In this document: positions 43,238-63,699 of the stretch, piece after piece
How positions within the stretch are numbered: the stretch's first letter is position 1
How the letters are laid out: the number at the start of each line of letters is the position of its first letter
DNA from: Caulobacter sp. Root1455
Lineage (GTDB): Bacteria; Pseudomonadota; Alphaproteobacteria; Caulobacterales; Caulobacteraceae
Direction of reading: 5' to 3'
Length of the DNA stretch: 64,000 nt
NCBI RefSeq assembly: GCF_001426905.1
Contig: NZ_LMFQ01000021.1
Location: 297,558-361,557 of the forward strand
The notes under the pieces: generated by a model
What the model was told of the DNA's origin: nothing
Databases searched by the model: none
Seen by the model: the letters and a program-made list of their open reading frames with translations, nothing else
Position numbers and translations under genes: made by a program

Positions 43238-45184
43238 CTAGGGCGCGATGGTCAGTTCGAACGGGGTCGCCGGTAATCCGGTCCGTCCATAGAGATTGAG
43301 GATCGGGCTGTCGGCCCAGGCGAAGCGGACCCTGACCGGCGCGAAGCCGGCCGGGATCGTCAGCCGGACCTGGTCGCCGGCCAGGGCCGCGTCCGCGAAA
43401 CGGCAGGCGCCGCCGGCGTCGCACAGCTCGAACCCGACCGGGCGGGCGTCGGCCTGGACCACCGCCGACTGGTCCAGCCGCACGACCACCGCATCCGCCG
43501 CCCGCGTCGCCGACAGCGGCGCGGGACCGGCCGCGACCAGGCCCGTCTCGCCATAGGCCAGCTTGCGCGCCAGCAGGGCCAGGCGGTGGCCGACCTGCTG
43601 CTTGTTGGCCGGATGGATGTCGTAGATGTCGCCGATGTCGACGGCCGAGGCGAGGCCGACCTTGGGATCGGCCGCGGCGGCCTGGCGCTGGGCGTCGCGA
43701 ACCCCGGCCCAGCCGGACTCGGCCGGCGCGGTCTGGCGCGGTCCGAACGCGGCCAGCTGCACCACCAGGAACGGCAGGTCCGGAGCGTCGAACGACCGGC
43801 GCCAGTCGGCGACCAGGGCCGGCAGCAGGCGGCCATAGGCGGCCGGCTCGGCGACATTGGCCTCGCCCTGGTACCAGGCGAAACCCTTCAGGCCGTAGGG
43901 GATCAGCGGCGCGATCATGCCGTTGCGCAGGGTCGACAGGCCGCTGCTCCCCACCCACGGCGCCGTCGGCGGCAGACCGCTCTGGGCGATGGCGGTCGAG
44001 ACCTTGTAGCGCCAGCTCGCGCCCAGCGGGGCGAACGAACCGTCGTCGAACTTCAGACCCTTCTGGGCCGCCGGTCCCCAGGCCCCGCCGCCGCCGCCGG
44101 CGTCGATGGCCCGCACGGCGATCAGGTTGGGACCGGCCCGCAGCACGCCCGGGGCGATCCTGTACGCGCGCGGCGTGTCCCAGCCCTGCGACGAACCGAT
44201 CTCGCGGCCGTTGACGAAGGTGGTGTCCAGGTCGTCGATCGGGCCCAGCGACAGGGTCGCGCCCTGCCTGGCCTGCTTTTCGGTCAGGACGATCGTCGCC
44301 CGCAGCCAGATCGTGCCGTCGAAGGTCTCAAGGCCTGGGTTGGTCTCCCAGAACTGCTCGGCCGGCATGGTCTTCCAGTCGCGGTCGTCGAAGTCCGGGC
44401 GGCTCCAGGCCGCGGCCTGCGGCTCGACCTTGGCGGCCCAGCGGTCGAGCATGGCGGTCCACTGGGCCATGCCGACGTCCGGCGACCGGGCGTAGTCGGC
44501 CAGCACGGCTAGGCCTTCGTCATAGCCGCCCAGGGCGTGGAGACCCTCGCGGCTGATCCAGTCCTGGATGATCGAACCGCCCCAGGTGGCGTCGATCAGG
44601 CCGATCGGAACGCCGGTGGTCTTCTTGATCTCGCGGCCCATGAAGAAGCAGGCGGCGCTGAAATTGTTGGCCGACTCTGGGGTGGCCGGACGCCAGGCGG
44701 CCTCCTTGGGCAGGGCCGTGGTCGGATTGGGCAGGCTGACGCGGCCGGTCTGCAGCAGGCGGATGTCGGGGTCGGCCGCGTTGGCCGCCTCGGCCTCGCC
44801 GCCCAGCGACCGGCGCAGCGGATATTCCATGTTCGACTGGCCCGAGCACAGCCAGACGTCGCCGACCAGCAGGTCCGAGATGGTCTGGCGCTCGCCGCCG
44901 GCCTGGGTCGTCAGGGTCAGGGCCGCACCCGGTTCGCGGGCCGGAAAGGTCGTCGACCAGCGGCCTTCGGCATCCGCCGTCGCGCTGGCCTTGGCTTCGC
45001 CGAGCGACAGCTCGACGACCGCCCCCGGCCCGGCCGCGCCCCAGACCCGGATCGGCTGGCCGCGCTGCAGGACGGCGTGGTCGGTGAAGACCGGCGCCAG
45101 CAAGGGCGCGGCGGAGACAGTCGTGGCGATTGCGCTGACCGCGGTCGCCGCCAAAAGGCCAAGGATCTTCGAACGCATGGACAT
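43238..45184 (-). CDS. Secreted sialate O-acetylesterase-type esterase
   Basis: 648 residues. The signal ends near TTVSAAP. Ser117 lies in the SGNH/GQSNM signature (LCSGQSNMEYPLRR) and the catalytic Asp/His pair is in the C-terminal part (DIYDIHPANKQQVGHRL). A jelly-roll (galactose-binding-like) insertion follows the middle (FDGTIWLRATIVLTEKQARQG). GH-associated SASA-family esterases remove acetyl groups from sugars; in this cluster acetylated xyloglucan is plausible (inference). It follows the GH3 gene on the same strand, with a perfect inverted repeat in the 153-nt gap. Confidence 0.9.
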   Translation of the reverse strand: MSMRSKILGLLAATAVSAIATTVSAAPLLAPVFTDHAVLQRGQPIRVWGAAGPGAVVELSLGEAKASATADAEGRWSTTFPAREPGAALTLTTQAGGERQTISDLLVGDVWLCSGQSNMEYPLRRSLGGEAEAANAADPDIRLLQTGRVSLPNPTTALPKEAAWRPATPESANNFSAACFFMGREIKKTTGVPIGLIDATWGGSIIQDWISREGLHALGGYDEGLAVLADYARSPDVGMAQWTAMLDRWAAKVEPQAAAWSRPDFDDRDWKTMPAEQFWETNPGLETFDGTIWLRATIVLTEKQARQGATLSLGPIDDLDTTFVNGREIGSSQGWDTPRAYRIAPGVLRAGPNLIAVRAIDAGGGGGAWGPAAQKGLKFDDGSFAPLGASWRYKVSTAIAQSGLPPTAPWVGSSGLSTLRNGMIAPLIPYGLKGFAWYQGEANVAEPAAYGRLLPALVADWRRSFDAPDLPFLVVQLAAFGPRQTAPAESGWAGVRDAQRQAAAADPKVGLASAVDIGDIYDIHPANKQQVGHRLALLARKLAYGETGLVAAGPAPLSATRAADAVVVRLDQSAVVQADARPVGFELCDAGGACRFADAALAGDQVRLTIPAGFAPVRVRFAWADSPILNLYGRTGLPATPFELTIAP

Positions 45185-45200
45185 GACCTATCCCAAAATC

Positions 45201-45325
45201 CGCTCATCCCGGCGAATGCCGGGACCCAGATCCCATAACCGTGTGGCTGATTGGAGCAGCGCTGAGCTCATGGAGCCAGCACTCCGCCATGCCATCTGGG
45301 TCCCGGCATTCGCCGGGATGAGCGG
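45201..45325. repeat. Perfect 32-bp inverted repeat (family F)
   Basis: A 32-bp arm beginning CCGCTCATCCCGGCGAATGC at 45201-45232 is exactly complemented at 45294-45325 with a 61-nt spacer. It lies between the GH3 and esterase genes of the same strand and could attenuate the downstream gene or stabilise the upstream mRNA. Confidence 0.9.
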
Positions 45326-45337
45326 AGACAAAGAGAA

Positions 45338-47809
<2,472 letters not shown>

Positions 47810-47892
47810 AACTCCCCACATTTTATCGTTGAATTCCGACAGCGTTGTCAGTCGCACGCCGACGCAGCCGGAGCAATCTACACGCCCTCATT

Positions 47893-47904
47893 GGTACCGG
47901 TATC
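47893..47904. promoter_or_regulatory. Candidate LacI-type operator in the GH3/GH97 divergent region
   Basis: A TACCGGTA palindrome at 47895-47902 extends to a near dyad GGTACCGGTATC. LacI-family sugar repressors in Caulobacter bind related C/G-centred dyads. It is placed to control both divergent glycosidase sets. A further TTTGT/ACAAA dyad is at 47938-47950. Confidence 0.5.
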
Positions 47905-47937
47905 TAAAAGCTCGACGGCGATCCATACACGGTCTAA

Positions 47938-47950
47938 TTTGTGTGACAAA
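47938..47950. promoter_or_regulatory. Second dyad near the GH97 promoter
   Basis: TTTGT at 47938-47942 and ACAAA at 47946-47950 flank GTG, 36 nt before the GH97 start. Possibly a second regulator site. Confidence 0.35.
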
Positions 47951-47985
47951 TAGAAACGCCCATTGGGCGTCATGGGGGAGACGAC

Positions 47986-49971
47986 ATGCGGGGAATTGCG
48001 GCGAGTCTTGTGTCCGGCGCGGCCCTGGCGGCCCTGGCGGCAGGCCCGGTCGGCGCCGCCGAAAAGCGGCTTTCCTCCCCCGACGGCGCGCTCAGGATCA
48101 CGGTCTCGGACAGCGACGGCCAGGCCCGTTACGCCGTCGCCTACAAGGGCCGCCCCCTGCTGGCGCCCTCCCCGCTGGGCCTGGCGCTCAGCGCCGGCGG
48201 CTCGCTGTCCCACGGCCTGAAGATCACCGGCGCCGTCCCGTCGGCCAGCGACACGACCTACGACCTGGTCGCGGGCAAGACCCGGACGGTCCGCGACCAC
48301 TACAACCAGCTCAGCGTCGATTTCCAGGAGCCCGAGGGCGGCAAGCGCCGGCTGCGGGTGATCGTGCGGGCCTATGACGACGGCGTGGCCTTCCGCTACG
48401 TGCTGCCCCGGCAGGCGGGGCTCGAGACGGTCGACATCCGCAACGAGGAGACCCGCTTCGACTTCCCGGCCGACTACCGCTGCCGGGGCCTGAACCTGGG
48501 CAAGTTCGGGACCAGCCACGAGGGCGAGTTCGATCCGGTCCAGGCCTCGAAGCTCCGCGAGCACAATCTCTATGACGCGCCCCTGGTCTGCGAGGGCGGG
48601 GGCAAGGACGGAGGCGCCGCCTTCGCGATCGCCGAGGCGGACCTGAAGGACTATGCGGGCCTCTACCTGACCGGCCGCGGCGACGGCGGGCTGGGCGTGC
48701 AGGTCAAGCTGTCGCCCAGGCTGGACGAGCCGCGCATCGCCGTGCGCGGCAAGCCCGGCGCCGACATCGTCTCGTCCTGGCGGGTGGTCATGGTCGCGCC
48801 GACCGCCGGCAAGCTGATCGAGAGCAACCTCGTCGCCACCCTCAACCCGCCGACCACCCTGGCCGACACCCGCTGGATCAAGCCCGGCAAGGCCGCCTGG
48901 GACTGGTGGAACGGACCGGTCGTGTCGGGCGTGCCCAAGGCTGGGATGAACGACGCCACGATCAAGGCCTATGTCGACTTCGCGGCCGCCAACGGCCTGG
49001 ACTACATGCTAATCGACGACGGCTGGTACAGGAACAGCGGCGGGGCCGGCACGGTGAAGCCGGGCGCCGACATCACCAAGACCATCCCCGAGATCGACAT
49101 GCCCGGCCTCGTCGCCTACGCGGCCGAACGCAAGGTCGGCCTGTGGGTCTGGGCCCACTGGAAGTCGATGGACGACCAGATGGACGAGGCCCTGGCCCTC
49201 TATGAGAGGTGGGGCCTGAAGGGGATCAAGGTCGACTTCATGGACCGCGACGACCAGGCCATGGTCGACTACTACCACCGCCTGCTGACCAAGGCCGGCC
49301 AGCATCATCTGATGGTCGACCTGCACGGCGCCTATCACCCCACGGGCCTGACCCGCACCTATCCGCACTACCTGACCCAGGAAGGCGTGCTGGGCGCGGA
49401 GTACAACAAGTGGAGCCGGCGGATCACCGCCACCCACAACGTCACCCTGCCCTACACCCGCATGCTGCTGGGCCCGATGGACTACACGCCGGGCGGCTTC
49501 CGCAACGTGGCGCCGGCGGCGTTCAAGCCGCGCAACGACCTGCCGTTCGTACAGACAACGCGCGGTCAGGCCCTGGCCCTGTACGTGGTCTATGACAGCC
49601 CGTTCGGCCTGGTGTCCGACAGTCCCGACACCTACCGCGACAGCCCGGCCGGCCTGGACTTCGTCAGCGCGGCCCCGACCACCTGGGACGAAACCCGGTT
49701 CGTCGCCGGCGAGATCGGCCAGTCGATCGTGCTGGCCCGCCGCAAGGGCGCGGACTGGTGGATCGGCGCCATGACCAATGAGGCCGGACGGACCGTGAAG
49801 GTCCCGCTGGGCTTCCTGGGAACCGGCGCCTTCACCGCCGACATCCGCCAGGACGGCGCGGCGCCGACCGATCTCGCCGCCTCGAAGCGGACGGTGAAGG
49901 CCGGCGACGTCCTGACCCTCAAGCTCGCGCCCAGCGGCGGCGCGGCCGTCCATCTGACCCCCGCCCCCTAG
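47986..49971 (+). CDS. Secreted family 97 glycoside hydrolase (alpha-glucosidase/alpha-galactosidase)
   Basis: 661 residues. The signal ends near GPVGAAEKR. The GH97 N-terminal beta-sandwich (SSPDGALRITVSD, VAFRYVLP) leads to the catalytic barrel: WDWWNGP, YMLIDDGWYRNSGG, GLKGIKVDFMDRDDQAMVDYYHRL, then a C-terminal sheet. GH97 includes inverting alpha-glucosidases and retaining alpha-galactosidases; this one has the Asp in KVDFMD where retaining members carry the nucleophile, so alpha-galactosidase is favoured. That would fit galactose side chains of xyloglucan (inference). It heads a three-gene operon. Confidence 0.93.
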   Translation: MRGIAASLVSGAALAALAAGPVGAAEKRLSSPDGALRITVSDSDGQARYAVAYKGRPLLAPSPLGLALSAGGSLSHGLKITGAVPSASDTTYDLVAGKTRTVRDHYNQLSVDFQEPEGGKRRLRVIVRAYDDGVAFRYVLPRQAGLETVDIRNEETRFDFPADYRCRGLNLGKFGTSHEGEFDPVQASKLREHNLYDAPLVCEGGGKDGGAAFAIAEADLKDYAGLYLTGRGDGGLGVQVKLSPRLDEPRIAVRGKPGADIVSSWRVVMVAPTAGKLIESNLVATLNPPTTLADTRWIKPGKAAWDWWNGPVVSGVPKAGMNDATIKAYVDFAAANGLDYMLIDDGWYRNSGGAGTVKPGADITKTIPEIDMPGLVAYAAERKVGLWVWAHWKSMDDQMDEALALYERWGLKGIKVDFMDRDDQAMVDYYHRLLTKAGQHHLMVDLHGAYHPTGLTRTYPHYLTQEGVLGAEYNKWSRRITATHNVTLPYTRMLLGPMDYTPGGFRNVAPAAFKPRNDLPFVQTTRGQALALYVVYDSPFGLVSDSPDTYRDSPAGLDFVSAAPTTWDETRFVAGEIGQSIVLARRKGADWWIGAMTNEAGRTVKVPLGFLGTGAFTADIRQDGAAPTDLAASKRTVKAGDVLTLKLAPSGGAAVHLTPAP

Positions 49972-49985
49972 ACGGAAGTTCCCGC

Positions 49986-52208
49986 TTGTCCTCCTTCAAA
50001 ACCCTCCTCGCCCTGGCCGCGGCCGCCGGCGCGCTGGCCCTGGCCGCGCCCGGCCTGGCCGCGCCGCCGGTGGCTCAGCCCTATAGCTGGAACACCGTCG
50101 AGGTGCTGGGCGGCGGCTTCGTCAGCGGGGTGGTCTATCACCCCACTGAAAAGGGGCTGGTCTATATCCGCACCGACATCGGCGGCGCCTATCGCCTGGA
50201 CCGGGCGACCCGCCGCTGGATCGCCCTGAACGACGACCTCAAGCGCGCCGACGGCCAGCTGGCCGGAGCGCTGAGCCTGGCCGTCGATCCGCGCGACCCG
50301 AACCGGCTCTACATGGCGGCCGGCGAATATACCGGGCCCAATGCGCGCGGCGGCGCGGTGCTGCGCTCCACCGACCGGGGCGCGACCTGGCTGAAGACCG
50401 AGCTGCCGGTCAAGATCGGCGGCAACGAGGACGGCCGCAACACCGGCGAGCGGCTGATGGTCGATCCCGCCCAGGGCGCGGTGCTGTTCCTGGGCGCCAA
50501 GGACGGCCTCTATCGCAGCGCCGACCACGGCGAGACCTGGTCGCGGGTCGAGGGCTTTCCGCGCGTCCACGTCACGCTGACGGCCTTCGACCCCGTCGAG
50601 AAGACCAGGACCGGCGAAACGGCGATCGTCTATGCCGGCTTCGCCACGGCGCCCAAGGACGGGATGAGCGGCGGCGGCTTGCTGGTCAGCACGGACGGCG
50701 GCAGGAGCTGGGGCCTGGTCAGCGGCCAGCCGAAGGGCCTGATCCCGCACCACCTGGCGCTGGACGCCAAGGGCGGGGTCTATGTCGCCTACGGCAATGG
50801 CCTCGGGCCCAACGGCGTGACCAACGGGGCGGTCTGGAAGATGGACCCCGACAGCGGGGCCTGGACCGACATCACCCCGATCAGGCCCGGCGGGGCCGAC
50901 GTGTTCGGCTATGGCGGGCTCAGCCTGGACCCGGCCCATCCCGGCGTCGTCGTGGTCTCGACCCTCGACCGCTGGAACATGGGCGACGAGGTCTTCCGCA
51001 GCACCGACGGCGGCAAGAGCTGGAAGGGTCTGCGCGACAGGTCCGAGCACGACACCGGCGGCGCGCCCTGGGTGCGCGGCCTGGAGGCCAAGGCCGGCCG
51101 CGCCATGGGCCACTGGATCGGCGACATCGACATCGACCCGACCAATCCCGACGAGGCGATCTATGTCACCGGCTACGGCCTGTGGCGGACGCAGGACCTG
51201 ACCGAGGCCGACCGCTCGGGCCGCACCCACTGGCGCTTCGACGACGAGGGGCTGGAGGAGACGGTGGCCCTGGAGTTGGTCTCGCCTCCCAACGGAGCCC
51301 CCCTGATCAGCACGATCGGCGACATCGGCGGCTTCCGCCACGACGACCTGAACAGCGCGGCCCGCAGCCGCTATTTCGACCCGCACGGCGGCACCAATCG
51401 CGGCCTCGACTACGCCGAATTGGAGCCCAGCATTCTTGTTCGAACAAGCGACCCGACGCCGACCGCCGGTTTCCGCTCGACCGACGGTGGCAAGACCTGG
51501 AAGGCCTTCGCCGCCTCGCCGCCGCGCGACGCCCACATCCACACCGGCCGCATCGCCCTGTCGGCCGACGGCCAGCGGATGGTCTGGGCCATGCGCAACG
51601 CCGTTCCTTACGTCTCCAGCGACGACGGCAGGACTTGGCGGCCCGTGCAGGGCGTCACCAAGTCCGAGCGCCCCGACTTCACCCCGGCCTCGGACCGGGT
51701 GAACCCGCTACGGTTCTACGTCTATGACGCGGCCCAGGGCGCGGTGCTGGCCAGCGCCGACGGCGGCGAAACGTTCAAGGTCACGGCCCGCGACCTGCCG
51801 AGGGGCGGCCCGCTGAAGGCCGTCCCCGGCGTCGAGGGCGAGCTGTGGCTGCCCACCGCCCAGGGCCTGATGCGCTCGACCGACGGCGGCGCCGGCTTCA
51901 AGGCCGTCAGCGGCGTCGGCGACGCGGGCCTGGTCGGGTTCGGCAAGGCCGCGCCGGGCCAGACCCATCCGGCGGTGTTCGTCTGGGGCAAGGTCGGCGG
52001 GGTCGAGGGCCTGTTCCGCTCCGACGACGTCGGCAAGACCTGGGTCAAGCTGCACGACGATCCCAAGGGGCCCCATTGGGGCTTCGCCGAGCTGCGGGCC
52101 CTGACCGGCGATCCGAACCGCTTCGGCCGCGTCTATCTCGGCGTCCACGGCCGAGGCATCCTCTACGGCGATCCGCAAGCAAACGCTTCGGCGCCTGTCC
52201 AGCCTTAG
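49986..52208 (+). CDS. Secreted GH74-type xyloglucanase
   Basis: 740 residues from a TTG start at 49986 with GGAAG upstream, 14 nt after the GH97 stop. After the signal (ALAAPGLAAPP) comes the diagnostic GH74 opening GGGFVSGVVYHPTEKGLVYIRTDIGGAYR with the catalytic Asp. The two seven-bladed propellers are marked by repeated Asp-box motifs (STDRGATW, SADHGETW, STDGGKSW, STDGGKTW, SSDDGRTW, SADGGETF). GH74 enzymes cleave the beta-1,4-glucan backbone of xyloglucan, either endo or from reducing ends. It is the enzyme that points most directly to a xyloglucan locus. Confidence 0.93.
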   Translation: MSSFKTLLALAAAAGALALAAPGLAAPPVAQPYSWNTVEVLGGGFVSGVVYHPTEKGLVYIRTDIGGAYRLDRATRRWIALNDDLKRADGQLAGALSLAVDPRDPNRLYMAAGEYTGPNARGGAVLRSTDRGATWLKTELPVKIGGNEDGRNTGERLMVDPAQGAVLFLGAKDGLYRSADHGETWSRVEGFPRVHVTLTAFDPVEKTRTGETAIVYAGFATAPKDGMSGGGLLVSTDGGRSWGLVSGQPKGLIPHHLALDAKGGVYVAYGNGLGPNGVTNGAVWKMDPDSGAWTDITPIRPGGADVFGYGGLSLDPAHPGVVVVSTLDRWNMGDEVFRSTDGGKSWKGLRDRSEHDTGGAPWVRGLEAKAGRAMGHWIGDIDIDPTNPDEAIYVTGYGLWRTQDLTEADRSGRTHWRFDDEGLEETVALELVSPPNGAPLISTIGDIGGFRHDDLNSAARSRYFDPHGGTNRGLDYAELEPSILVRTSDPTPTAGFRSTDGGKTWKAFAASPPRDAHIHTGRIALSADGQRMVWAMRNAVPYVSSDDGRTWRPVQGVTKSERPDFTPASDRVNPLRFYVYDAAQGAVLASADGGETFKVTARDLPRGGPLKAVPGVEGELWLPTAQGLMRSTDGGAGFKAVSGVGDAGLVGFGKAAPGQTHPAVFVWGKVGGVEGLFRSDDVGKTWVKLHDDPKGPHWGFAELRALTGDPNRFGRVYLGVHGRGILYGDPQANASAPVQP

Positions 52209-52216
52209 GGATCGTC

Positions 52217-53842
52217 ATGAGCTTCAATCGCCGCGACCTGCTGAACCTCGGCGCCGGCCTGGCCGCCGCCTCCGCCACGCCCGCCCTCGCCGCCCCGAAA
52301 GGCGGCTTCCAGCCCAACTGGGAGTCGCTGGCCGACGGCTACAAGACCCCCGACTGGTTCCGCGACGCCAAGCTGGGGATCTGGTCGCACTGGGGCCCGC
52401 AATGCGTGCCCGAGTACGGCGACTGGTACGGCCGCCAGATGTATATCCAGGGCAATCCGGTCTACGAGCACCACGTCAAGACCTACGGCCACCCCACGAC
52501 CTTCGGCTTCATGGAGTTCATCCCCCGCTGGAAGGCGCAGAACTGGGATCCGGAAGGCCTGATGAAGAAGTACCAGGCCGCCGGGGCGAAGTACTTCATG
52601 TCGATGGCCAACCACCACGACAACCTCGACATGTTCGCCAGCCGCCACCATGCCTGGAACACCCTGCGCGTCGGTCCGGGGCGGGACATCGTCGGGACCT
52701 GGGAGAAGGTCGCCCGCGCCCACGGCCTGCGCTTCGGCGTCTCCAACCACTCGGCCCATGCCTGGCACTGGTGGCAGACCGCCTACGGCTACGACGCCGA
52801 GGGCCCGCTGAAGGGCCGGCGCTACGACGCCTATCGACTGACCAAGGCCGACGGCAAGGGCAAGTGGTGGCAGGGGTTGGACCCGCAGGAGCTCTACACC
52901 GGCCGCAACATGCTGATCCCCGACGGGATCGACAGCATCAAGGCCGCCAACGCCTGGCACGACGCCCGTGACGGCGAGTGGATCGAAACCCCGCCGCCGA
53001 ACAATCCGAGCTTCACCCAGAACTGGCTGGCGCGCCAGAACGACCTGGTCGACCGCTACCGGCCCGACCTGGTCTACTTCGACAACACCACCCTGCCGCT
53101 TGGCCAGGCCGGGCTGTCGGCCACCGCCCACTATTACAACCAGGCCCGCGCCTGGCGCGGCGCGACCGACGTGGTGGTGACCGGCAAGAAGCTCAGCCCT
53201 TTGCAACGCCGGGGCATCGTCGAGGACGTCGAGCGCGGCTTCTCCGACCGCCTGCGGTCCGAGCCCTGGCAGACCGACACCTGCATCGGCAACTGGCACT
53301 ACGACCGCGGGCTCTACGACCGCGACGGCTACAAGAGCGCCAGGGACGTGATCCAGCGATTGGTCGACGTGGTCAGCAAGAACGGCTGCCTGCTGGTCTC
53401 GATCCCCATGCGCGGCGACGGCACGATCGACGACAAGGAGGAGAAGGTGCTGGAAGGCATGGCCGGCTGGATCGCCGTCAACGGCCCGGCGATCTACGCC
53501 TCGCGGCCCTGGCGAATCTATGGCGAGGGCCCGACGCGGCTGGTCGAGGGCGTGATGAACGAGGGTGACGCCAAGCCGTTCGAGGCCGCCGACATCCGGT
53601 TCACGACCAAGGCCGGCGACCTCTACGCCCTGCCGATGGCGTGGCCGGACGGCGAGCTGGTGATCGAGAGCCTGGCGACCTCCGGCCCGACCAGCGCGGG
53701 CGAGGTGCGGCGGGTGGAACTGCTGGGCTCGCCCGAGCCGCTGGCGTTCAAGCGGGATGGCAAGGGGTTGCGGGTGGTCTTGCCCAGGGCGCGACCGGCG
53801 TTCACGCCGGTGGTGAAGATCTCGGGGCCTGGGTTGGTGTAA
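52217..53842 (+). CDS. Secreted GH29 alpha-L-fucosidase
   Basis: 541 residues. A twin-arginine-like signal (NRRDLLNLGAGLAAASATPALA) opens the protein. GH29 landmarks are WFRDAKLGIWSHWGPQ, KYFMSMANHHDNLDMF and the catalytic nucleophile region RPDLVYFDNTTLP; the C-terminal part is a beta-sandwich. It starts 8 nt after the GH74 gene. The enzyme would remove fucose from xyloglucan side chains. It ends at a family D repeat that may act as terminator. Confidence 0.92.
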   Translation: MSFNRRDLLNLGAGLAAASATPALAAPKGGFQPNWESLADGYKTPDWFRDAKLGIWSHWGPQCVPEYGDWYGRQMYIQGNPVYEHHVKTYGHPTTFGFMEFIPRWKAQNWDPEGLMKKYQAAGAKYFMSMANHHDNLDMFASRHHAWNTLRVGPGRDIVGTWEKVARAHGLRFGVSNHSAHAWHWWQTAYGYDAEGPLKGRRYDAYRLTKADGKGKWWQGLDPQELYTGRNMLIPDGIDSIKAANAWHDARDGEWIETPPPNNPSFTQNWLARQNDLVDRYRPDLVYFDNTTLPLGQAGLSATAHYYNQARAWRGATDVVVTGKKLSPLQRRGIVEDVERGFSDRLRSEPWQTDTCIGNWHYDRGLYDRDGYKSARDVIQRLVDVVSKNGCLLVSIPMRGDGTIDDKEEKVLEGMAGWIAVNGPAIYASRPWRIYGEGPTRLVEGVMNEGDAKPFEAADIRFTTKAGDLYALPMAWPDGELVIESLATSGPTSAGEVRRVELLGSPEPLAFKRDGKGLRVVLPRARPAFTPVVKISGPGLV

Positions 53843-54030: not shown

Positions 54031-54792
54031 ATGACCACCCTCGCCGGCCGCACGATCCTGATCACCGGCGCCTCCTCGGGCATCGGCGCCGCCTTCGCCC
54101 GGGCCGCCGCCGAGGCCGGGGCCAAGGTCGCCGCCGCCGCGCGCCGGGCCGACAAGCTGCAAACCCTCGTGGCCGAGATCACCGCCGCCGGCGGGACCGC
54201 CCAGGCCTTCGCCATGGACGTCGAGGACGAGGCCTCGGTCATCGCCGGTTACGACGCGGTCGAGGCCGCGTTCGGTGCGCCGGAGTCGGTGATCGCCAAC
54301 GCCGGGATCAACATCGAGGGCTCGGCGCTGGACATCGCGATCGAGGACTTCGACAAGGTCCTGGCCGTCAACACCCGCGGCGTCTTCCTGACCGCCCGCG
54401 AAGGCGCGCGGCGGATGATCAGGGCCGGCAGCCCGGCCAGCGAGCGCGGCCGCATCGTGCTGGTGGCCTCGATCGGCGCGCACAAGGTGCTGCCGGGCCT
54501 GACCGCCTACGCCGCCTCCAAGGCCGCCACCGCCCACATGGGCAAGAGCCTGGCCCGCGAATGGGCGCGCAAGGGGATCAACGTCAACGTCCTATGCCCC
54601 GGCTACATCAAGACCGAGCTGAACGCGGCGTGGTTCGACAGCGAAGGCGGCCAAAAGCTGGTCTCGACCTTCCCGCGCAAGCGGCTGATGGAGACGAGCG
54701 ACCTGGAGGCGATGGCGCTGTATCTCGCGTCCGACGAAGCGCGAGCGGTGACGGGGTCGGTGTTCACCGTCGATGACGGACAGTCGCTGTAA
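54031..54792 (+). CDS. Short-chain dehydrogenase/reductase
   Basis: 253 residues. The cofactor motif is TGASSGIG (Gly13-Gly19), the adenine side has AMDVEDEASV and NAGINIEG. The catalytic triad is Ser147, Tyr160, Lys164 (YAASK). AAGGA lies upstream of the ATG. The N-terminal ARRADKL after the second strand is a typical NADP(H)-preferring basic site. It may reduce a sugar-derived or acyl substrate; nothing in the neighbourhood identifies it. It is separated from the glycosidase operon by a repeat element. Confidence 0.93.
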   Translation: MTTLAGRTILITGASSGIGAAFARAAAEAGAKVAAAARRADKLQTLVAEITAAGGTAQAFAMDVEDEASVIAGYDAVEAAFGAPESVIANAGINIEGSALDIAIEDFDKVLAVNTRGVFLTAREGARRMIRAGSPASERGRIVLVASIGAHKVLPGLTAYAASKAATAHMGKSLAREWARKGINVNVLCPGYIKTELNAAWFDSEGGQKLVSTFPRKRLMETSDLEAMALYLASDEARAVTGSVFTVDDGQSL

Positions 54793-55202: not shown

Positions 55203-55922
55203 CTAGCCCCGCGTCCGGCCGAACCGCGCCACCAGGTCGTAGGCTTCGCCCGGGAACAGCTGCCGCACCCAGGTGATCGGCGCGTCGGCGCGCCAGGTGC
55301 GGCGCTCGACCGCCAGCAGGGCGGTTCCAGGATCAAGCGCCATCAGCCCCGCCGTCGCCGCGTCGGCCCCGACGGCGCTGATGCGGTTCTCGGCCTCGGT
55401 CCACGGCACGTGGTGCAGCAGCCAGGCGCCGGGCGACTCGTCGGCGAAGTCCAGGTCGGCCGCCTCGGGCACGGCGGCCAGGCTGATCAGCCGGTCCTCC
55501 AGGGCGAACGGCCGATCGCCGGCGACATGCAGGCCGCGCAGCACCAGCAGCTCGCCGCCCGCCGCCAGGGCGATCTCCTCGACATCGCCGGCCTTGGCCT
55601 CGCGCCGCCGCCGGTCCAGCAGATCGAAACGGTAGGTCTCGCCGCGCGCCACGATCTCGGCCTGGATGTCGGGAATGTCGAGCACGGTGGAATGGACGCG
55701 CGGCCGGGCCACGAACGAGCCGGCGCGGCGACGGCGGACGATCAGCCCCTCTTCCGCCAAGGCCGACATCGCCTTGTTCACGGTCATCCGCGAACAGCCG
55801 AACTGGGCCATCAGCTCGGTCTCGGACGGAACCTTGCGGCCCGGCGTCCAGGCGCCCGAGCGGATCAGGTCCTCGATCTCGCCGCGAATGCGCTGGTGCA
55901 GCGTCGTCTCGTTCACGCTCAA
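55203..55922 (-). CDS. hutC: HutC, GntR-family repressor of histidine utilisation
   Basis: 239 residues from a TTG at 55922 with AGGGAG 9 nt upstream (a GTG at 55916 is the alternative). The GntR winged helix is IRGEIEDLIRSGAWTPGRKVPSETELMAQFGCSRMTVNKAMSALAEEGLIVRRRRAGSFVA. The UTRA ligand domain follows (ERRTWRADAPITWVRQLFPGEAYDL near the C terminus). HutC proteins are released by urocanate. The gene follows hutF by 14 nt on the same strand, and its likely operator is the palindrome between hutF and hutI. Confidence 0.93.
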   Translation of the reverse strand: MSVNETTLHQRIRGEIEDLIRSGAWTPGRKVPSETELMAQFGCSRMTVNKAMSALAEEGLIVRRRRAGSFVARPRVHSTVLDIPDIQAEIVARGETYRFDLLDRRRREAKAGDVEEIALAAGGELLVLRGLHVAGDRPFALEDRLISLAAVPEAADLDFADESPGAWLLHHVPWTEAENRISAVGADAATAGLMALDPGTALLAVERRTWRADAPITWVRQLFPGEAYDLVARFGRTRG

Positions 55923-55936
55923 GCCAGCACGCTCCC

Positions 55937-57442
55937 TCAAGACAGAATGGCCAAGGCCGTCCGATAGCGCGCCAGGATCGCCTCGCGCGCGTGGTGGCGT
56001 CCGCCGCTGACGACCTGCCGGCCGCCGCGCCAGACGCCGTCGACGGTCCCGTGTCGCCCGGCGAACACCCAGCTGTCCAGCAGGGCGTCGCCGTCGCGGC
56101 CGATCATCGCCGGATGGGCGCGGTCCAGGGTCACGAAGTCGGCCGCCCGCCCCCGGCGCAGGCCGCCGACCACGCCCAGGGCCTGAGCCCCGCCGCCGAC
56201 CGCCGCGCGGAACAGCTCCCCGCCCGTCGAGCTGCCCGGCGCCTTGGCCAGCACGTTGCGGGCCCGCCGGGTCAGGCGCTGGGCGTATTCCAGGGTCCGC
56301 AGCTCCTCTGCCGCGTCGATCAGCACGTTGCTGTCCGAGCCGATCCCGAACGCCCCGCCGGCCGCCAGGTAGTCGTGGGCCGGGAAGACGCCGTCGCCCA
56401 GATTGGCCTCGGTGATCGGACACAGGCCCGCCACCGCGCCGCTCTTGGCCAGGCGCTCGGTCTCCGTGGCGTTCAGGTGGGTGGCGTGAACCAGGCACCA
56501 GCGCTTGTCGACGGGGGCGCTGTTCATCAGCCAGCGCACCGGCCGCGCGCCGGTGGCGGCCAGGCAGTCGTCGACCTCCTGGGTCTGCTCGGCGATGTGG
56601 ATGTGGATCGGGTCGGCGCCGGCCAGCGGCAGGATCGCGGTCAGCTCTTCGCCGGTCACCGCCCGCAGGCTGTGGGGCGCGATCCCGACCACCGCGTCGG
56701 GCAGGCCGGCGACCGCCGCGCGGCTGGCCTCGATCAGCCGGCCGTAGCCGTCGACGTCATGGATGAACCGTCGCTGGCCCTCGCCGGGCGCGACGCCGCC
56801 GAAGCCGGCATGGGCGTAGAACACCGGCAGCAGGGTCAGGCCGATGCCCGTCTGGTCGGCCGCCGCCGCGATCCGCGCCGCCATCTCGGCGGGGTCGGCG
56901 TAGGGCGAGCCGTCCTTGTCGTGGTGCAGATAGTGGAACTCGCCGACCCGCGTCGAGCCGGTCTCCAGCATTTCCATGTAGGCGAGCGCCGCGATCGCCT
57001 GGACCTCGTCGGGACCCAGCCGGTCGACGAACCGGTACATCAGCTCGCGCCAGGTCCAGAAGCTGTCTCCGCCCCTTCCACTATTGGGCGGGCCGCGTGT
57101 CTCCGTAAGGCCGGCCATGGCGCGCTGAAAGGCGTGGCTGTGCAGGTTGGGCAGGCCGGGCAGGCATGGACCGTGGGCGACTTCGCCGGACTGGCGGGCG
57201 ACGTCGGTGTCGATGCGGCTGATCACCCCGTCGGTGACCGTGAACCGCACGGCCTTGGCCCAGCCGTCGGCCAGCAGGGCCTGCTCGAACCACAGGGTCT
57301 GGGGACCGGCGGGCCGCGCGCGCTCGGGTTCGCGCTCCGGCGCGGGGGCGGGCGCGGCCTCGACCTCCCCCTCGGTCTTGGGGGGCGGCGTGTAGATCGG
57401 CTCGTCAGCCTCAGGTTCTGACGGAAACTCGTCGTCGGTCAC
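55937..57442 (-). CDS. hutF: HutF, formimidoylglutamate deiminase, with Pro/Glu-rich N-terminal extension
   Basis: 501 residues from a GTG at 57442 with GAGGA 8 nt upstream. The amidohydrolase core begins near residue 50 ([18 protein letters not shown]) and has the metal-binding [29 protein letters not shown] and the distal [19 protein letters not shown]. It hydrolyses N-formimidoyl-L-glutamate to N-formylglutamate plus ammonia, which HutG then deformylates. The first 45 residues (for example [22 protein letters not shown]) are a low-complexity extension absent from typical HutF. It is divergent from hutI across the HutC-type operator. Confidence 0.93.
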
Positions 57443-57464
57443 TGGACAGTCCTCGGGTCGCGCG

Positions 57465-57482
57465 AATATGTCTATACATATT
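57465..57482. promoter_or_regulatory. HutC-type operator between hutF and hutI
   Basis: AATATGT at 57465-57471 and ACATATT at 57476-57482 are perfect complements around CTAT. The core TGTCTATACA resembles known HutC sites. It is the only strong dyad in the divergent region. Confidence 0.8.
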
Positions 57483-57528
57483 GAAGCCGTCGGCAAGAGA
57501 CCGAACCGGCGTCGGGAGATCCCAGGCC

Positions 57529-58740
57529 ATGCGCTGCGATCGGGTGTGGAGCAAGGCCCGCCTGGCCACTTTCGCCGCCGACCTGCCGGGCATGGGCGTG
57601 GTCGAGGACGGCGTCGTGGCCAGCCTCGACGGTCGCATCGTCCATGCCGGCCCGGCCGCCGACGCGCCCGCCTTCAAGGCGCTTGAAACCATCGACTGCG
57701 AAGGCCGCTGGATCACGCCCGGCCTGATCGACCCCCACACCCACCTGATCCACGGCGGCGACCGCGCCCACGAGTTCGAGCTGCGGCTGGCCGGCGCGAG
57801 CTACGAGGACATCGCCCGGGCCGGCGGCGGCATCGTCTCGACCATGAAGGCCACCCGCGCCGCCTCGCGGGCCGAGCTCGTGGCCAGCGCCCTGCCCCGC
57901 CTGGACGCCCTGATCGCCGAGGGCCTGACGACCATCGAGATCAAGTCCGGCTACGGCCTGTCGCTGGACGATGAGCTGAAGAGCCTGCGCGCCGCCCGCG
58001 CCCTGGCGGACGTGCGCCAGGTGTCGGTGACGACCACCTTCCTCGGCGCCCACGCCCTGCCGCCGGAATACGCCGACGCCCCCGACGATTACATCGACCA
58101 CGTCTGCTACCAGATGATCCCCGCCGTCGCCGCCGAGGGCCTGGCGGACGCCGTCGACGCCTTCTGCGAGGGCATCGGCTTCACCCCCGCCCAGACCCGC
58201 CGGGTGTTCGAGGCGGCCCACGATCACGGCCTGCCCGTGAAGCTTCACGCCGAGCAGCTGTCGAACCTGAACGGCGCGGCCCTGGCCGCCGAGTTCGGAG
58301 CCCTGTCGGCCGACCACCTGGAACACCTGGACGAAGCCGGGATCGCCGCCATGGCCAAGGCCGGCACCACCGCCGTGCTGCTGCCGGGCGCCTTCTACTT
58401 CGTGCGCGAGACCAAATTGCCGCCCGTCCAAGCGTTGCGCGCGGCCGGCGTGCCGATGGCCCTGGCCACCGACTGCAACCCCGGCACCTCGCCCCTGACC
58501 AGCCTGCTGCTGACCATGAACATGGCCGCCACCCTGTTCCGGATGACCGTCGACGAATGCCTGGCCGGCGTCACGCGCGAGGCCGCGCGGGCGATCGGGC
58601 GGCTGGAAAGCGTCGGGACGCTGGAGGCAGGCAAGGCCTGCGATCTGGCCGTCTGGGACATCGAGCGTCCCGCCGAACTTGTCTATCGCATGGGCTTCAA
58701 CCCGCTCCATGCGCGCGTCTGGAAGGGTGAAGTCACGTGA
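57529..58740 (+). CDS. hutI: HutI, imidazolonepropionase
   Basis: 403 residues from the ATG at 57529 (an upstream ATG at 57481 lies in the operator). Metal ligands His70 and His72 ([19 protein letters not shown]) are followed by the [13 protein letters not shown] loop. LHAEQLSN and ADHLEHLDE provide further ligands, and [14 protein letters not shown] supplies the catalytic Asp. It hydrolyses 4-imidazolone-5-propionate to N-formimidoyl-L-glutamate. It overlaps hutH by 4 nt (GTGA). Confidence 0.95.
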
Positions 58741-60272
58741 TCGAAGTCGTTCTCAACCCCGGCGAGGTCAGCCTGACCGACTGGAAGGCCGTCTATCGCG
58801 GCGCGCCCGCGCGACTGCATCCCGGCGCCGCCCCGGTGATCGCGGAAAGCGCCGCCGCCGTCGAACGCATCCTGGCCAAGGGCGCGCCGGTCTACGGGAT
58901 CAACACCGGCTTCGGGAAGCTGGCCAGCGTGCGGATCGGCGACGCGGATCTCGAGACCCTGCAGCGCAACATCGTCCTGTCCCACGCCGCCGGGACGGGC
59001 GCGCCCTCGCCCGTCCCGGTGATCCGGCTGATGATGGCCCTGAAGCTGGCCAGCCTGGCCCAGGGCGCGTCGGGCGTGAAGCCGGCGACCACCGACCTGC
59101 TGGAGGCCATGCTCGTGAAGGGCCTGACGCCCGTCACGCCCTGCCAGGGCTCGGTCGGCGCGTCGGGCGACCTGGCCCCGCTGGCGCACATGGCCGCGAC
59201 CATGATCGGGGTCGGCGAGATCTTCGTCGGCGGCCAGCGTCTCCCGGCCATCCAGGCTCTGATGGAAGCGGGCCTCAAGCCGTTGACGCTGGGTCCCAAG
59301 GAAGGCCTGGCCCTGCTGAACGGCACCCAGTTCTCGACCGCCAACGCCCTGGCCGCCCTGTTCGACGCCGAGCGGCTGTTCCAGTCGGCCCTGGTCACCG
59401 GCGCCCTAGCGACCGAGGCCGCCAAGGGTTCGGACACCCCGTTCGATCCGCGCATCCACACCCTGCGCCGCCAGCCCGGCCAGATCGAGACCGCCGCCGC
59501 CCTGCGCGCCCTGATGGCCGGCTCGGCGATCCGCGACTCCCACCGCGAGGGCGACACGCGGGTGCAGGATCCCTACTGCCTGCGCTGCCAGCCGCAGGTG
59601 ATGGGCGCGGCCCTCGACGTGCTGCGCCAGGCGGCCGTCACCCTGGCGACCGAGGCCAACGGCGTCTCGGACAACCCGCTGATCTTCCCCGACACGGACG
59701 AGGCGCTGTCGGGCGGCAATTTCCACGCCGAGCCCGTGGCCTTCGCGGCCGACATGATCGCCCTGGCCGTCTGCGAGATCGGCTCGATCGCCGAGCGGCG
59801 CATCGCCATGCTGGTCGACCCGGCCTGCTCGGGCCTGCCGGCCTTCCTGACGCCGAAGCCGGGCCTCAACTCCGGCTTCATGATCCCGCAGGTCACGGCC
59901 GCGGCCCTGGTCTCGGAGAACAAGCAGAAGGCCTATCCGGCCAGCGTCGACTCCATCCCGACCTCGGCCAACCAGGAGGATCACGTCTCGATGGCCGCTC
60001 ACGGCGCGCGGCGCCTGCTGGCCATGGTCGAGGCCGCCGAGGCGGTGATCGGCATCGAGCTCCTGGCCGCCGTCCAGGGCTGCGACTTCCACGCGCCCCT
60101 GACCTCGAGTCCGGCCCTGGAGAGCGTGCGCCGGATCCTGCGGGCGCAAGTCCCGCACCTGTCGGACGACCGCCACTTCCACCCGGACATGGAGGCCGCC
60201 AACGCCCTGGTGCGCGCCGGCGCGGTCGTGGTGGCGGCGTCCAGCGTCGACCTGCCGGGGGTGGAGGCGTGA
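58737..60272 (+). CDS. hutH: HutH, histidine ammonia-lyase
   Basis: 511 residues from a GTG that overlaps the hutI stop. The MIO cofactor is formed by Ala142-Ser143-Gly144 ([16 protein letters not shown]). Other family marks are [12 protein letters not shown] and the C-terminal [18 protein letters not shown]. It deaminates L-histidine to urocanate in the cytosol, the first step of the pathway. Confidence 0.97.
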
Positions 60273-60286
60273 GCGCTCGAGCATCG

Positions 60287-60392
60287 TGCGTCCTTCGAGG
60301 CCCGCTGCGCGGACGCCTCAGGATGAGGAGCTTTGTCGCTGCTCAATTCCTCATCCCGAGGTGCGAGCCGCGGGCGAGCCTCGAAGGACGCA
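60287..60392. repeat. Family B palindromic repeat inside the hut operon (hutH-hutG gap)
   Basis: TGCGTCCTTCGAGG at 60287 and CCTCGAAGGACGCA ending at 60392, with inner CTCAGGATGAGG and CTCATCCCGAG. It interrupts the operon between hutH and hutG. Confidence 0.9.
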
Positions 60393-60414
60393 CGGCGGTT
60401 GGAGGGTCGGAGCC

Positions 60415-61242
60415 ATGAGCCCGCAGAACTGGCTCCACGTCACGCGCGGCGAGGCCCCGCTGGTCGTCAGCATCCCGCACGCCGGAACGATCATCCCGTC
60501 CGACATCGAGGCGCGGCTGGTCTCGCCCTGGCTGGCGCGCAAGGACGCCGACTGGTGGCTGGGCGAACTCTACGCCTTCGCCGACGGTCTGGACGCCGCG
60601 GTGGTCCGCACCGGCGTTTCGCGCACGGTGATCGACGTCAATCGCGACCCGTCGGGCGTGTCGCTGTATCCCGGCCAAGCCACCACCAGCCTGTGCCCGG
60701 TCGACACCTTCGACGGCGAGCCGCTGTATGTCGCCGGCCAGGAGCCGGGCGCGGCCGAGATCGCCCGGCGGCGCGTCACCTTCTTCGATCCCTACCACGC
60801 CGCCCTCGAGACCGAGCTCGACCGGCTGGTCGCGGTCCACGGCAAGGTGGTGCTGTACGACGCCCACTCGATCCGCTCGCGCGCGCCCCGGCTGTTCGAC
60901 GGCGAGCTGCCGCAGTTCAACATCGGGACGAACGGCGGGGCGGCCTGCGATCCGGGCCTGACCCGTAGGGTCGAGGCCGCCTGCGACGCCACGGGCCTGC
61001 CGCGCGTCACCAACGGCCGGTTCAAGGGCGGCTGGATCACCCGCCGCTACGGCCGGCCGGACCAGGGCGTCCACGCCGTCCAGATGGAGCTGGCCTGCCG
61101 CGGCTATATCGACGAGCCGGCGGCTCTTACGCCGGCGAGTTGGCCCACGCCCTACCACGCCCCGCGCGCCGCGCCGCTGCGCGCCGCGCTCACCGACGTG
61201 CTGAAGGCCTGCATCGCCTTCGCCCAAGCCGCAGTGAATTGA
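60415..61242 (+). CDS. hutG: HutG, N-formylglutamate deformylase
   Basis: 275 residues from the ATG at 60415. The FGase fold has VSIPHAGTIIPSDIE with the first metal His, DVNRDPSGVSLYPGQATTSLCP, VVLYDAHSIRSRAPRLF with the Asp-His pair, and the terminal GRFKGGWITRRYGRP motif. It hydrolyses N-formyl-L-glutamate to formate and glutamate, after HutF. A family B repeat separates it from hutH. Confidence 0.95.
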   Translation: MSPQNWLHVTRGEAPLVVSIPHAGTIIPSDIEARLVSPWLARKDADWWLGELYAFADGLDAAVVRTGVSRTVIDVNRDPSGVSLYPGQATTSLCPVDTFDGEPLYVAGQEPGAAEIARRRVTFFDPYHAALETELDRLVAVHGKVVLYDAHSIRSRAPRLFDGELPQFNIGTNGGAACDPGLTRRVEAACDATGLPRVTNGRFKGGWITRRYGRPDQGVHAVQMELACRGYIDEPAALTPASWPTPYHAPRAAPLRAALTDVLKACIAFAQAAVN

Positions 61243-61260
61243 TGAGGCCGGCAACCATCC

Positions 61261-61363
61261 TGCGTCCTTCGAGGCCCGCTGCGCGGGCGCCTCGGGATGA
61301 GGAATTCAATAGGGCGGTCCTCATCCTGAGGTGCGAGCCGAAGGCGAAGCCTCGAAGGACGCA
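61261..61363. repeat. Family B palindromic repeat inside the hut operon (hutG-hutU gap)
   Basis: TGCGTCCTTCGAGG at 61261 and its complement ending at 61363. The second copy in this operon, almost identical to the one at 60287. Confidence 0.9.
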
Positions 61364-61417
61364 GAGCGCCCAAGCCGCCCTCCCGCCAAACTCCCTCTCA
61401 ACGCTCGAGACCCGCCC

Positions 61418-63082: not shown

Positions 63083-63114
63083 GCCATACTCCCCCCTCCT
63101 CGCGGATTAGATAG

Positions 63115-63699
63115 ATGCGCGTCCTGAGAGCCGCCGACCGGATCGCCACGCCGTGGAAGAACGGCGGCGGCCACACGCGCGAGGTGGCCGCCTTCCCGCC
63201 GGGGGCGGACCTGGACGGCTTCGAGTGGCGGATCAGCCTGGCGCAGATCGCCGCCGACGGCCCGTTCTCGACCTTCCCCGGCGTGGACCGGGTGCTGACG
63301 GTGATCCAGGGCGAAGGGCTGCTGCTGACCGTCGACGACCGCATGCTGGCGCTGGACGCCGCTTCCCCGCCCCTGGCCTTTCCGGGCGAGGCGCGGGTCG
63401 CGGCCCGCCTGACCGACGGACCGATCAGCGACCTGAACGTGATGGTGCGGCGCGACAAGTGGCGGGCGCGGACCCGCAGGCTGACCGTGGCCGGCGCCAG
63501 CGAGGTGGCCGCCAAGGCCCGGGTGACCCTGGTCCTGGTCCTGGATCCGTTGCGCGTCCTTCGCCCCGGGGGCGCGATCGACCTGTCGCCGCTGGACGCG
63601 GTTCTGCTCGAACACGGCCACTCACACCTAAGCCTCGAGGGACGCGGCCGAACATTGATCTCCGAAATCACGGTCGACCCGGAACATATTCCACAGTAA
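63115..63699 (+). CDS. hutD: HutD-family protein
   Basis: 194 residues with the cupin-like HutD/Ves fold: TPWKNGGGHTREVAAFPPG near the N terminus, EWRISLAQIAADGPFSTFPGVDRVLTVIQGEG, then DLNVMVRRDKWRA. HutD is conserved in hut operons; its role is uncertain, possibly binding formimidoylglutamate and limiting pathway flux. It lies 32 nt after hutU. Confidence 0.9.
   Translation: MRVLRAADRIATPWKNGGGHTREVAAFPPGADLDGFEWRISLAQIAADGPFSTFPGVDRVLTVIQGEGLLLTVDDRMLALDAASPPLAFPGEARVAARLTDGPISDLNVMVRRDKWRARTRRLTVAGASEVAAKARVTLVLVLDPLRVLRPGGAIDLSPLDAVLLEHGHSHLSLEGRGRTLISEITVDPEHIPQ

What the first reader, a model, noticed from the sequence alone, without database searches (positions are those of the whole stretch)
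43238..53842. Compact xyloglucan-degradation locus without its own transporter
GH74 backbone cleavage, GH29 fucose removal, GH97 (galactose), GH3 (xylose/glucose) and an acetylesterase together match decorated xyloglucan. All five appear exported. There is no TonB receptor, permease or isoprimeverose enzyme alongside, so uptake must be encoded elsewhere.
Basis: inference. Interest (0 to 1): 0.55.

Follow-up and report, generated by a model that had tools for sequence, protein, structure and literature searches.

The report
Caulobacter xyloglucan locus split by hut
These five enzymes are one half of a largely known kind of bacterial gene cluster for eating the plant polysaccharide xyloglucan; its uptake receptor and remaining enzymes seemed missing only because a histidine-degradation operon sits in between and the window stops just before them.

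Summary
Xyloglucan is very likely the substrate. The headline claim, no transporter alongside, is an effect of the window's edge. From 0.65 kb past it come GH31 alpha-xylosidase, GH35 beta-galactosidase, a halogenase-type protein and a TonB-dependent receptor, then on the other strand a sugar-acid dehydratase, DgoK, an aldolase, a sodium:solute symporter, a GntR regulator and GH5. That receptor is this genome's best match to a receptor beside GH74 in a Xanthomonas locus. A hut (histidine) operon separates the halves; it does so in 10 other genus genomes examined, while in 7 the halves lie 3-5 kb apart without hut. Both halves carry xyl-box-like operators, which elsewhere mark pentose genes and two further TonB receptors, one of them upstream of a GH95. 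Verdict: a Xanthomonas/Cellvibrio-type xyloglucan utilization locus, a new variant of a known kind, of modest interest. All activities are inferred from sequence.

The parts
43238..45184 (-). CE20-type carbohydrate acetylesterase (SASA halves with an inserted jelly-roll domain), left half of the locus
   Evidence: Pfam SASA 61 bits; best solved chain 7kmm, 379 bits over 26-643
45338..47809 (-). GH3 beta-glucosidase/exo-beta-glucanase (ORF open from 47857; likely ATG at 47809)
   Evidence: Pfam GH3 N, C and Exop_C; best solved chain 3rrx exo-1,3/1,4-beta-glucanase, 752 bits; start by eye
47837..47850 (.). second LacI-type palindrome (CGACAGCGTTGTCA), within one mismatch of the exact site before GH5 in the right half
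   Evidence: seen before GH3 in 9 of 9 near genomes
47892..47905 (.). xyl-box-like palindrome TGGTACCGGTATCT between the divergent GH3 and GH97-GH74-GH29 genes
   Evidence: same gap in 9 of 9 near genomes, not in G199, G064, G142
47986..49971 (+). GH97, retaining alpha-galactosidase-like; not a fixed part of the locus
   Evidence: Pfam GH97 three domains; best solved chain 3a24, 381 bits; present in 12 of 19 genomes with the left block in view
49986..52208 (+). GH74 endo-xyloglucanase
   Evidence: 2cn2 xyloglucan hydrolase 543 bits over 30-733 of 740
52217..53842 (+). GH29 alpha-L-fucosidase or alpha-L-galactosidase
   Evidence: Pfam Alpha_L_fucos 289 bits; best solved chain 7ljj exo-alpha-L-galactosidase, 319 bits; start by eye
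54031..54792 (+). SDR oxidoreductase downstream of GH29; possible sugar dehydrogenase, weak link to the locus
   Evidence: at this place in several relatives, not seen there in G191, G091, G199
55203..63699 (.). hut (histidine utilization) block that separates the two halves; not part of the xyloglucan system. The right half starts at C21:362208, 651 bases past the window's end
   Evidence: HutH, HutU, HutG models over cut-off, HutF-type and GntR-UTRA domains; right half

Best explanation
The five genes are the left half of a Caulobacter xyloglucan utilization locus of the Xanthomonas/Cellvibrio kind. The right half (GH31, GH35, halogenase-type protein, TonB receptor; then dehydratase, DgoK, aldolase, sodium:solute symporter, GntR, GH5) begins 0.65 kb beyond the window, on the far side of a hut operon. 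Likely working: exported GH74 (perhaps also GH5) cuts the backbone; the TonB receptor at C21:368509-371511 carries the oligosaccharides into the periplasm; CE20 removes acetyl groups, GH29 terminal L-fucose or L-galactose, GH35 beta-galactose; GH31 takes alpha-xylose from the non-reducing end and GH3 the glucose thus uncovered, in turns; single sugars enter by the symporter and other carriers. Xylose then lifts a LacI-type (XylR-like) repressor from xyl-box-like operators before both halves. Shown: gene content, order, homology, operator placement and conservation. Inferred: every activity, each protein's compartment, the repressor and the inducer.
For: Right half found past the window. GH31 closest to solved alpha-xylosidases 7kmp and 2xvg; GH35 to 3u7v, 7kmn, 4d1i. 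The receptor matches receptors in 18 of 80 GH74 loci at E 1e-30, the best eight at 42-50% over 982-1010 residues, whereas three other outer-membrane proteins of this genome match none of the 80; a receptor of a Xanthomonas GH74 locus picks it first in this genome, 507 against 419 bits. Hut lies between the halves in 10 other genus genomes; the halves are 3-5 kb apart without hut in 7; GH74-CE20-GH29 adjoin GH31-GH35 in Asticcacaulis. Two operator types occur in both halves.
Against: No expression or enzyme data. The operator pattern was drawn from sites in this locus, so its hits there are by construction; the left site differs from the published xyl-box at 4 of 14 bases. GH97 has no clear task on xyloglucan. 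In 5 of 13 further genus genomes no left-block gene was found within about 16 kb of GH31, and G208 showed only GH3. A GH31 tree does not make the hut-linked genomes one clade.
Confidence: 0.85

Rival explanations
1. One reading: a compact degradation locus without its own transporter, whose products depend on a receptor encoded elsewhere.
For: Inside the window no TonB receptor stands beside the five genes; the genome has many receptors (one search lists 50 matches, several pieces per gene) and two others carry xyl-box-like sites.
Against: The receptor, GH31 and GH35 lie just past the window, the receptor is the best match to a GH74-locus receptor, and seven genus genomes have the two halves 3-5 kb apart without hut.
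Confidence: 0.05
2. Two separate systems that happen to flank hut: a left set for one polysaccharide and a right set for another galactose- and xylose-rich glycan.
For: Genomes with the right set but without left-block genes nearby (G134, G182, G106, G035, G194); the left set carries GH97 in 12 of 19 genomes.
Against: Contiguous layout in 7 genus genomes and in Asticcacaulis; both operator types in both halves; GH74, CE20, GH35, GH31 and a receptor form one cluster in 7 Xanthomonadaceae loci.
Confidence: 0.07
3. The left set acts mainly on another glycan with alpha-galactose and L-fucose or L-galactose ends, with xyloglucan a side substrate.
For: GH97 nearest to alpha-galactosidases; GH29 nearest to an exo-alpha-L-galactosidase; 11 of 19 genomes with the left block in view have no GH74 in it.
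Against: GH74 in 8 of those 19; the CE20-type esterase nearest to 7kmm; constant company of GH31 and GH35 of the xyloglucan type.
Confidence: 0.03

Closest known systems
Xanthomonas XyGUL (PMC8245568; abstract and parts 1-3 of 4 of the Results read)
   Same: TonB receptor(s), GH74, CE20 acetylesterase, GH35, GH31; orthologue-level matches in two Xanthomonas and five related loci
   Different: Here GH29 instead of GH95 inside the locus, plus a GH3 and often a GH97; a hut operon in the middle; galactonate-type genes and a sodium:solute symporter instead of xylulokinase, xylose isomerase and an MFS carrier; the GH95 relative sits on another contig
Cellvibrio japonicus XyGUL (PMC4285296; abstract and outline only)
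   Same: alpha-xylosidase, beta-galactosidase and a TonB receptor in one locus; GH31 and GH35 close to its enzymes 2xvg and 4d1i (that these are the Cellvibrio enzymes is partly recall)
   Different: There the fucosidase is GH95 and, per PMC8245568, no endo-xyloglucanase or esterase is linked
xyl-box/XylR regulon of Xanthomonas and Caulobacter (passages in PMC7748154, PMC10380989, PMC7198004)
   Same: 14-base palindromes of the same form at pentose genes and in both halves; one exact published box at C4:106526
   Different: The sites of this locus differ from the published box at 1, 2 and 4 of 14 bases; binding was not tested and the repressor not identified

Membership tests
XyGUL of the Xanthomonas/Cellvibrio kind | Alpha-xylosidase GH31 and beta-galactosidase GH35 of the xyloglucan type with a TonB receptor in one locus | tested here: met
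XyGUL of the Xanthomonas/Cellvibrio kind | Endo-xyloglucanase GH74 and CE20 acetylesterase linked (Xanthomonas form) | tested here: met
   linked across hut
XyGUL of the Xanthomonas/Cellvibrio kind | GH95 fucosidase in the locus | tested here: not met
   The genome's one GH95 match is on contig C24; GH29 stands in the locus. Seen as a variant feature, as PMC8245568 calls the family variable in content
XyGUL of the Xanthomonas/Cellvibrio kind | Induction by, and growth on, xyloglucan or its oligosaccharides | not testable with these tools
   needs bench work
GH74 | End-to-end propeller homology and the aspartate changed between 2cn2 and 2cn3 | tested here: met
   D64 aligns with it and is invariant in 10 sequences; that it is catalytic is recalled
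CE20 xyloglucan acetylesterase | SGNH halves with an inserted domain and GQSNM and DIHP motifs | tested here: met
   alignment with 7kmm over 26-643; the motifs as catalytic sites are recalled
CE20 xyloglucan acetylesterase | Deacetylation of xyloglucan oligosaccharides | not testable with these tools
   needs an assay
GH97 retaining alpha-galactosidase | Homology and the aspartate that differs between 3a24 and 5e1q | tested here: met
   D417 aligns with it; its role as nucleophile is recalled
GH97 retaining alpha-galactosidase | Score over the NCBIfam model's cut-off | tested here: not met
   491.5 bits against a cut-off of 800
GH29 xyloglucan fucosidase | GH29 domain | tested here: met
   Pfam 289 bits
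GH29 xyloglucan fucosidase | Release of fucose rather than L-galactose | not testable with these tools
   nearest solved chain is an exo-alpha-L-galactosidase
xyl-box/XylR regulon | Operator before the genes, bound by XylR, released by xylose | tested here: inconclusive
   Operator-like sites found; binding not testable. Ten LacI-type genes exist, one 9.5 kb from the C12 site

The most novel reading that the evidence does not exclude
The GH97-GH29 pair marks a xyloglucan system tuned to side chains other than the usual fucosyl-beta-galactosyl one, for example ends capped with alpha-L-galactose or alpha-D-galactose, while the ordinary fucosidase (GH95) works from a separate xyl-box operon with its own receptor; one repressor ties the scattered pieces together.
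Probability: 0.12. Interest if true: 0.5.

Novelty: new variant of a known kind. Interest (0 to 1): 0.3.

Why it matters
It extends the xyloglucan system known from Xanthomonas and Cellvibrio to Caulobacter and Asticcacaulis and gives a testable regulon. It also shows how a window edge plus an intervening operon can make a complete utilization locus look transporterless. The GH95 relative found at a distance downstream of a receptor with a similar operator suggests that such systems can scatter while staying co-regulated.

Tried and rejected
Transporterless locus: rejected after reading past the window. The outer-membrane protein at window 24882-28100 as the missing receptor: rejected; it is of CarboxypepD_reg/OMP_b-brl_4 type with only a sub-threshold Plug match, and it matches none of the 80 GH74 loci at E 1e-30. 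GH97 as the xyloglucan galactosidase: rejected on linkage. The palindromes between CE20 and GH3 as an operator: set aside as a dispersed intergenic repeat; the loose core pattern is no commoner in the window than in shuffles (8 found, 8.6 expected). One origin of the hut-in-between state: not supported by the GH31 tree, so direction is left open. A Pfam scan of a presumed Xanthomonas GH95 used a wrong ORF and found nothing; the homology was shown by tblastn. Structure prediction and fold search were not used.
Full report
Observation. The five genes exist at the stated coordinates. Pfam gives SASA for 43238-45184(-), GH3 with Exop_C for 45338-47857(-), three GH97 domains for 47986-49971(+), BNR and Sortilin-type propeller repeats for 49986-52208(+) and Alpha_L_fucos for the ORF ending at 53842(+). 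Against solved structures the propeller protein is GH74 (2cn2 xyloglucan hydrolase, 543 bits over 30-733), the esterase is closest to 7kmm (379 bits), GH97 to 3a24 alpha-galactosidase (381 bits), GH29 to 7ljj exo-alpha-L-galactosidase (319 bits) and GH3 to 3rrx exo-1,3/1,4-beta-glucanase (752 bits). That 7kmm is the Xanthomonas XaeA structure is my recall; PMC8245568 describes XaeA as founding member of CE20. GH97 and GH74 are 14 bases apart and GH74 and GH29 8 bases, so GH97-GH74-GH29 is probably one transcript, with GH3 and CE20 on the other strand.

Beyond the window. The window is G000:C21:297558-361557. A search of the genome for GH31 gave one match, the ORF C21:362208-365045(-), 651 bases past the window's end. 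Then follow GH35 (365114-366808, -), a tryptophan-halogenase-type protein (366907-368439, -) and a 1000-residue TonB receptor (368509-371511, -). On the + strand come an IlvD/EDD dehydratase, DgoK, an aldolase-like ORF, a sodium:solute symporter, a GntR-FCD regulator, GH5 and an aldo-keto reductase. The dehydratase scores best with a dihydroxy-acid dehydratase subfamily and next with L-arabinonate dehydratase, below that model's cut-off. The aldolase was named through its G164 relative (87% identical), which passes a 2-dehydro-3-deoxy-6-phosphogalactonate aldolase model. GH31 is closest to the alpha-xylosidases 7kmp and 2xvg (1190 and 1187 bits), GH35 to the beta-galactosidases 3u7v, 7kmn, 8fa4, 5jaw and 4d1i, GH5 to endoglucanases.

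The receptor. It scores 682 bits with TIGR01782 (cut-off 310). It matches 18 of the 80 GH74 loci at E 1e-30 or better, the best eight at 42-50% over 982-1010 residues; the other three outer-membrane proteins tried (C24, C20, window 24882-28100) matched none of the 80 at that threshold. In the reverse direction a receptor from the GH74 locus of Xanthomonas sp. AmX2 (L139) finds this gene first in the genome, 507 bits against 419 for the next.

Relatives. Of 199 genomes of the family 58 match GH74 at E 0.001, many weakly. Of 75 genomes of the genus 19 match and 10 have a close GH74 (79-100% identity, the window's own included). One search names the genus Caulobacter and a second genus Asticcacaulis, through contig lengths equal to those of G082, G091, G116, G188 and of G060, G157. 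Left block, hut and right block were read in that order in five genomes with close GH74 (G164, G191, G082, G091, G188; G082's GH35 is mostly missing, G191 and G091 lack GH97 and SDR, G188 lacks GH97 and its contig ends in GntR), and on two contigs in G116, where no GH5 was found. Five more have hut between the halves, with differences: G203 (no GH97, GH31 or halogenase match), G215 (no CE20, GH97, GH74 or GH31 match; stretch ends in the receptor), G199, G064 and G142 (no GH74; G199 without dehydratase and GH5 match; the other two with stretches cut). I then took 13 of the genomes whose GH31 was not near HutH: 7 (G096, G170, G202, G201, G213, G121, G130) have GH29, GH3 and CE20, and all but G201 also GH97, with GH29 3.2-5.4 kb from GH31 and no hut match between; G208 shows only GH3; 5 (G134, G182, G106, G035, G194) show no left-block gene in the stretch, about 16 kb. 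By the coordinates, HutH lies within 20 kb of GH31 on the same contig in 16 of the 36 genomes whose GH31 is 75% identical or more. In G121 the genes left of CE20 (OhrR, orf39026, TetR, AAA/APH) are those of the window, so the place is shared and hut is the difference. A tree of 28 GH31 sequences needs 2 changes for the hut-linked state and does not make it a clade; G116 groups with G199, G064 and G142 there. Whether hut entered or left is open. In the 19 genomes with the left block in view GH29 and GH3 are present in 19, CE20 in 17 (G215 lacks it; the G142 stretch ends before it), GH97 in 12 (not in G191, G091, G188, G116, G203, G215, G201) and GH74 in 8.

Wider kin. Among the 80 GH74 loci, 7 Xanthomonadaceae loci (L113, L119, L123, L137, L139, L153, L155) hold receptor, GH74, CE20, GH35 and GH31 together, and Asticcacaulis L090, L091 and L138 hold GH74-CE20-GH29 next to GH31-GH35. 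The scan kept the best 80 of 302 relatives. Most of the others, among them Actinobacteria, Bacteroidota and Opitutae, show GH74 without this set.

Operators. Intergenic regions of the locus contain LacI-type palindromes. I wrote one pattern, TGRTASCGSTAWCW, to cover those seen here, so its hits in this locus are by construction. In the whole genome it has 9 places, against none for the pattern read backwards: 3 in this locus (GH3|GH97 at window 47892, GH35|halogenase, receptor|dehydratase) and 6 elsewhere. The 6 lie beside an arabinofuranosidase-like gene and a GH27-type gene; a sugar transporter with a GH43 and a dehydratase; a GH43 followed by an arabinofuranosidase; two TonB receptors; and one alpha/beta hydrolase with no evident link. 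One of the 6 equals the published xyl-box TGGTAGCGCTAACA (passages in PMC7748154 and PMC10380989). The GH3|GH97-or-GH74 site is kept in 9 of 9 near genomes (G000, G164, G191, G082, G091, G188, G116, G203, G215) but not found in G199, G064 or G142. The receptor|dehydratase site is in 8 of 8 genomes where that gap is in view, and in G199 between receptor and DgoK. An exact match in the GH35|halogenase region was not found in G164. A second palindrome, TGACARCGYTGTCA, has 5 exact places in the genome, one before GH5, and occurs within one mismatch before GH3 in the same 9 of 9 near genomes; another exact copy stands beside a gene that looks, by eye only, like glucose-6-phosphate dehydrogenase. 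Ten LacI-type genes exist, one at C12:257852, 9.5 kb from the C12 site: a candidate repressor, not tested.

The scattered piece. The genome's one GH95 match is at C24:761 kb. The protein is 55-57% identical, near full length, to genes in four Xanthomonadaceae GH74 loci (L153, L139, L113, L155) and matches three more (L119, L123, L137) cut by the stretch end; it had no match in the Caulobacter and Asticcacaulis stretches searched. It stands behind a GDSL esterase and a TonB receptor that lies 116 bases from an operator match. A GH2-type gene follows, so this operon may also serve another wall glycan.

Chemistry. Xyloglucan galactose is beta-1,2-linked and its xylose alpha-1,6-linked (PMC8245568). 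GH3 fits the beta-glucosidase that alternates with GH31; in Xanthomonas that role is played by GH3 enzymes encoded outside the cluster, here one is inside it. What GH97 cuts is unknown. GH29 could take fucose or L-galactose: a network study puts BpGH29 in a cluster whose members have been reported to release fucose from xyloglucan (PMC11189522, passage).

Print. Searches for Caulobacter with xyloglucan and TonB-dependent (12 papers) and with xyloglucan and GH74 (7 papers) listed, by titles and abstract openings, no paper on such a locus in Caulobacter. The library lacks most subscription journals. PMC8245568 mentions a Caulobacter GH35 (CC0788) as a tetramer.

Noticed in passing
G000:C21:366907-371511 (beyond the window) against stretches L043-L056: Receptor and halogenase-type gene look exchanged in place: the receptor is 40-44% and the halogenase 56-59% identical between this genome and five relatives whose adjoining GH31 and dehydratase are 88-96% identical; the first 200 alignment columns of the receptor are 52-88% identical, the rest mostly 20-60%. 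G191 differs again, so six genomes hold three receptor types.
   Followed up: partly
G000:C24:755-768 kb: TonB receptor with a xyl-box-like site, GDSL esterase, GH95 and a GH2-type gene in a row on the minus strand, the GH95 related to that of Xanthomonas xyloglucan loci.
   Followed up: partly
window 24882-28100 (-): 1072-residue outer-membrane protein with a carboxypeptidase-regulatory domain and OMP_b-brl_4 barrel; not related to the xyloglucan receptors at the threshold used.
   Followed up: partly
window 45185-45337: Inverted CCCGGCGAATGCCGGGA-type palindromes between CE20 and GH3; similar ones stand in the GH31|GH35 gap of G164, as if a dispersed intergenic repeat.
   Followed up: partly
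window 54031-54792 (+): SDR oxidoreductase downstream of GH29 in several but not all relatives; it might oxidise fucose or galactose.
   Followed up: no
window 35580-37079 (-): Protein with an aminoglycoside-phosphotransferase-like (APH) domain followed by an AAA_33 kinase domain, 93-97% identical in the same-genus genomes where it was seen whole.
   Followed up: no
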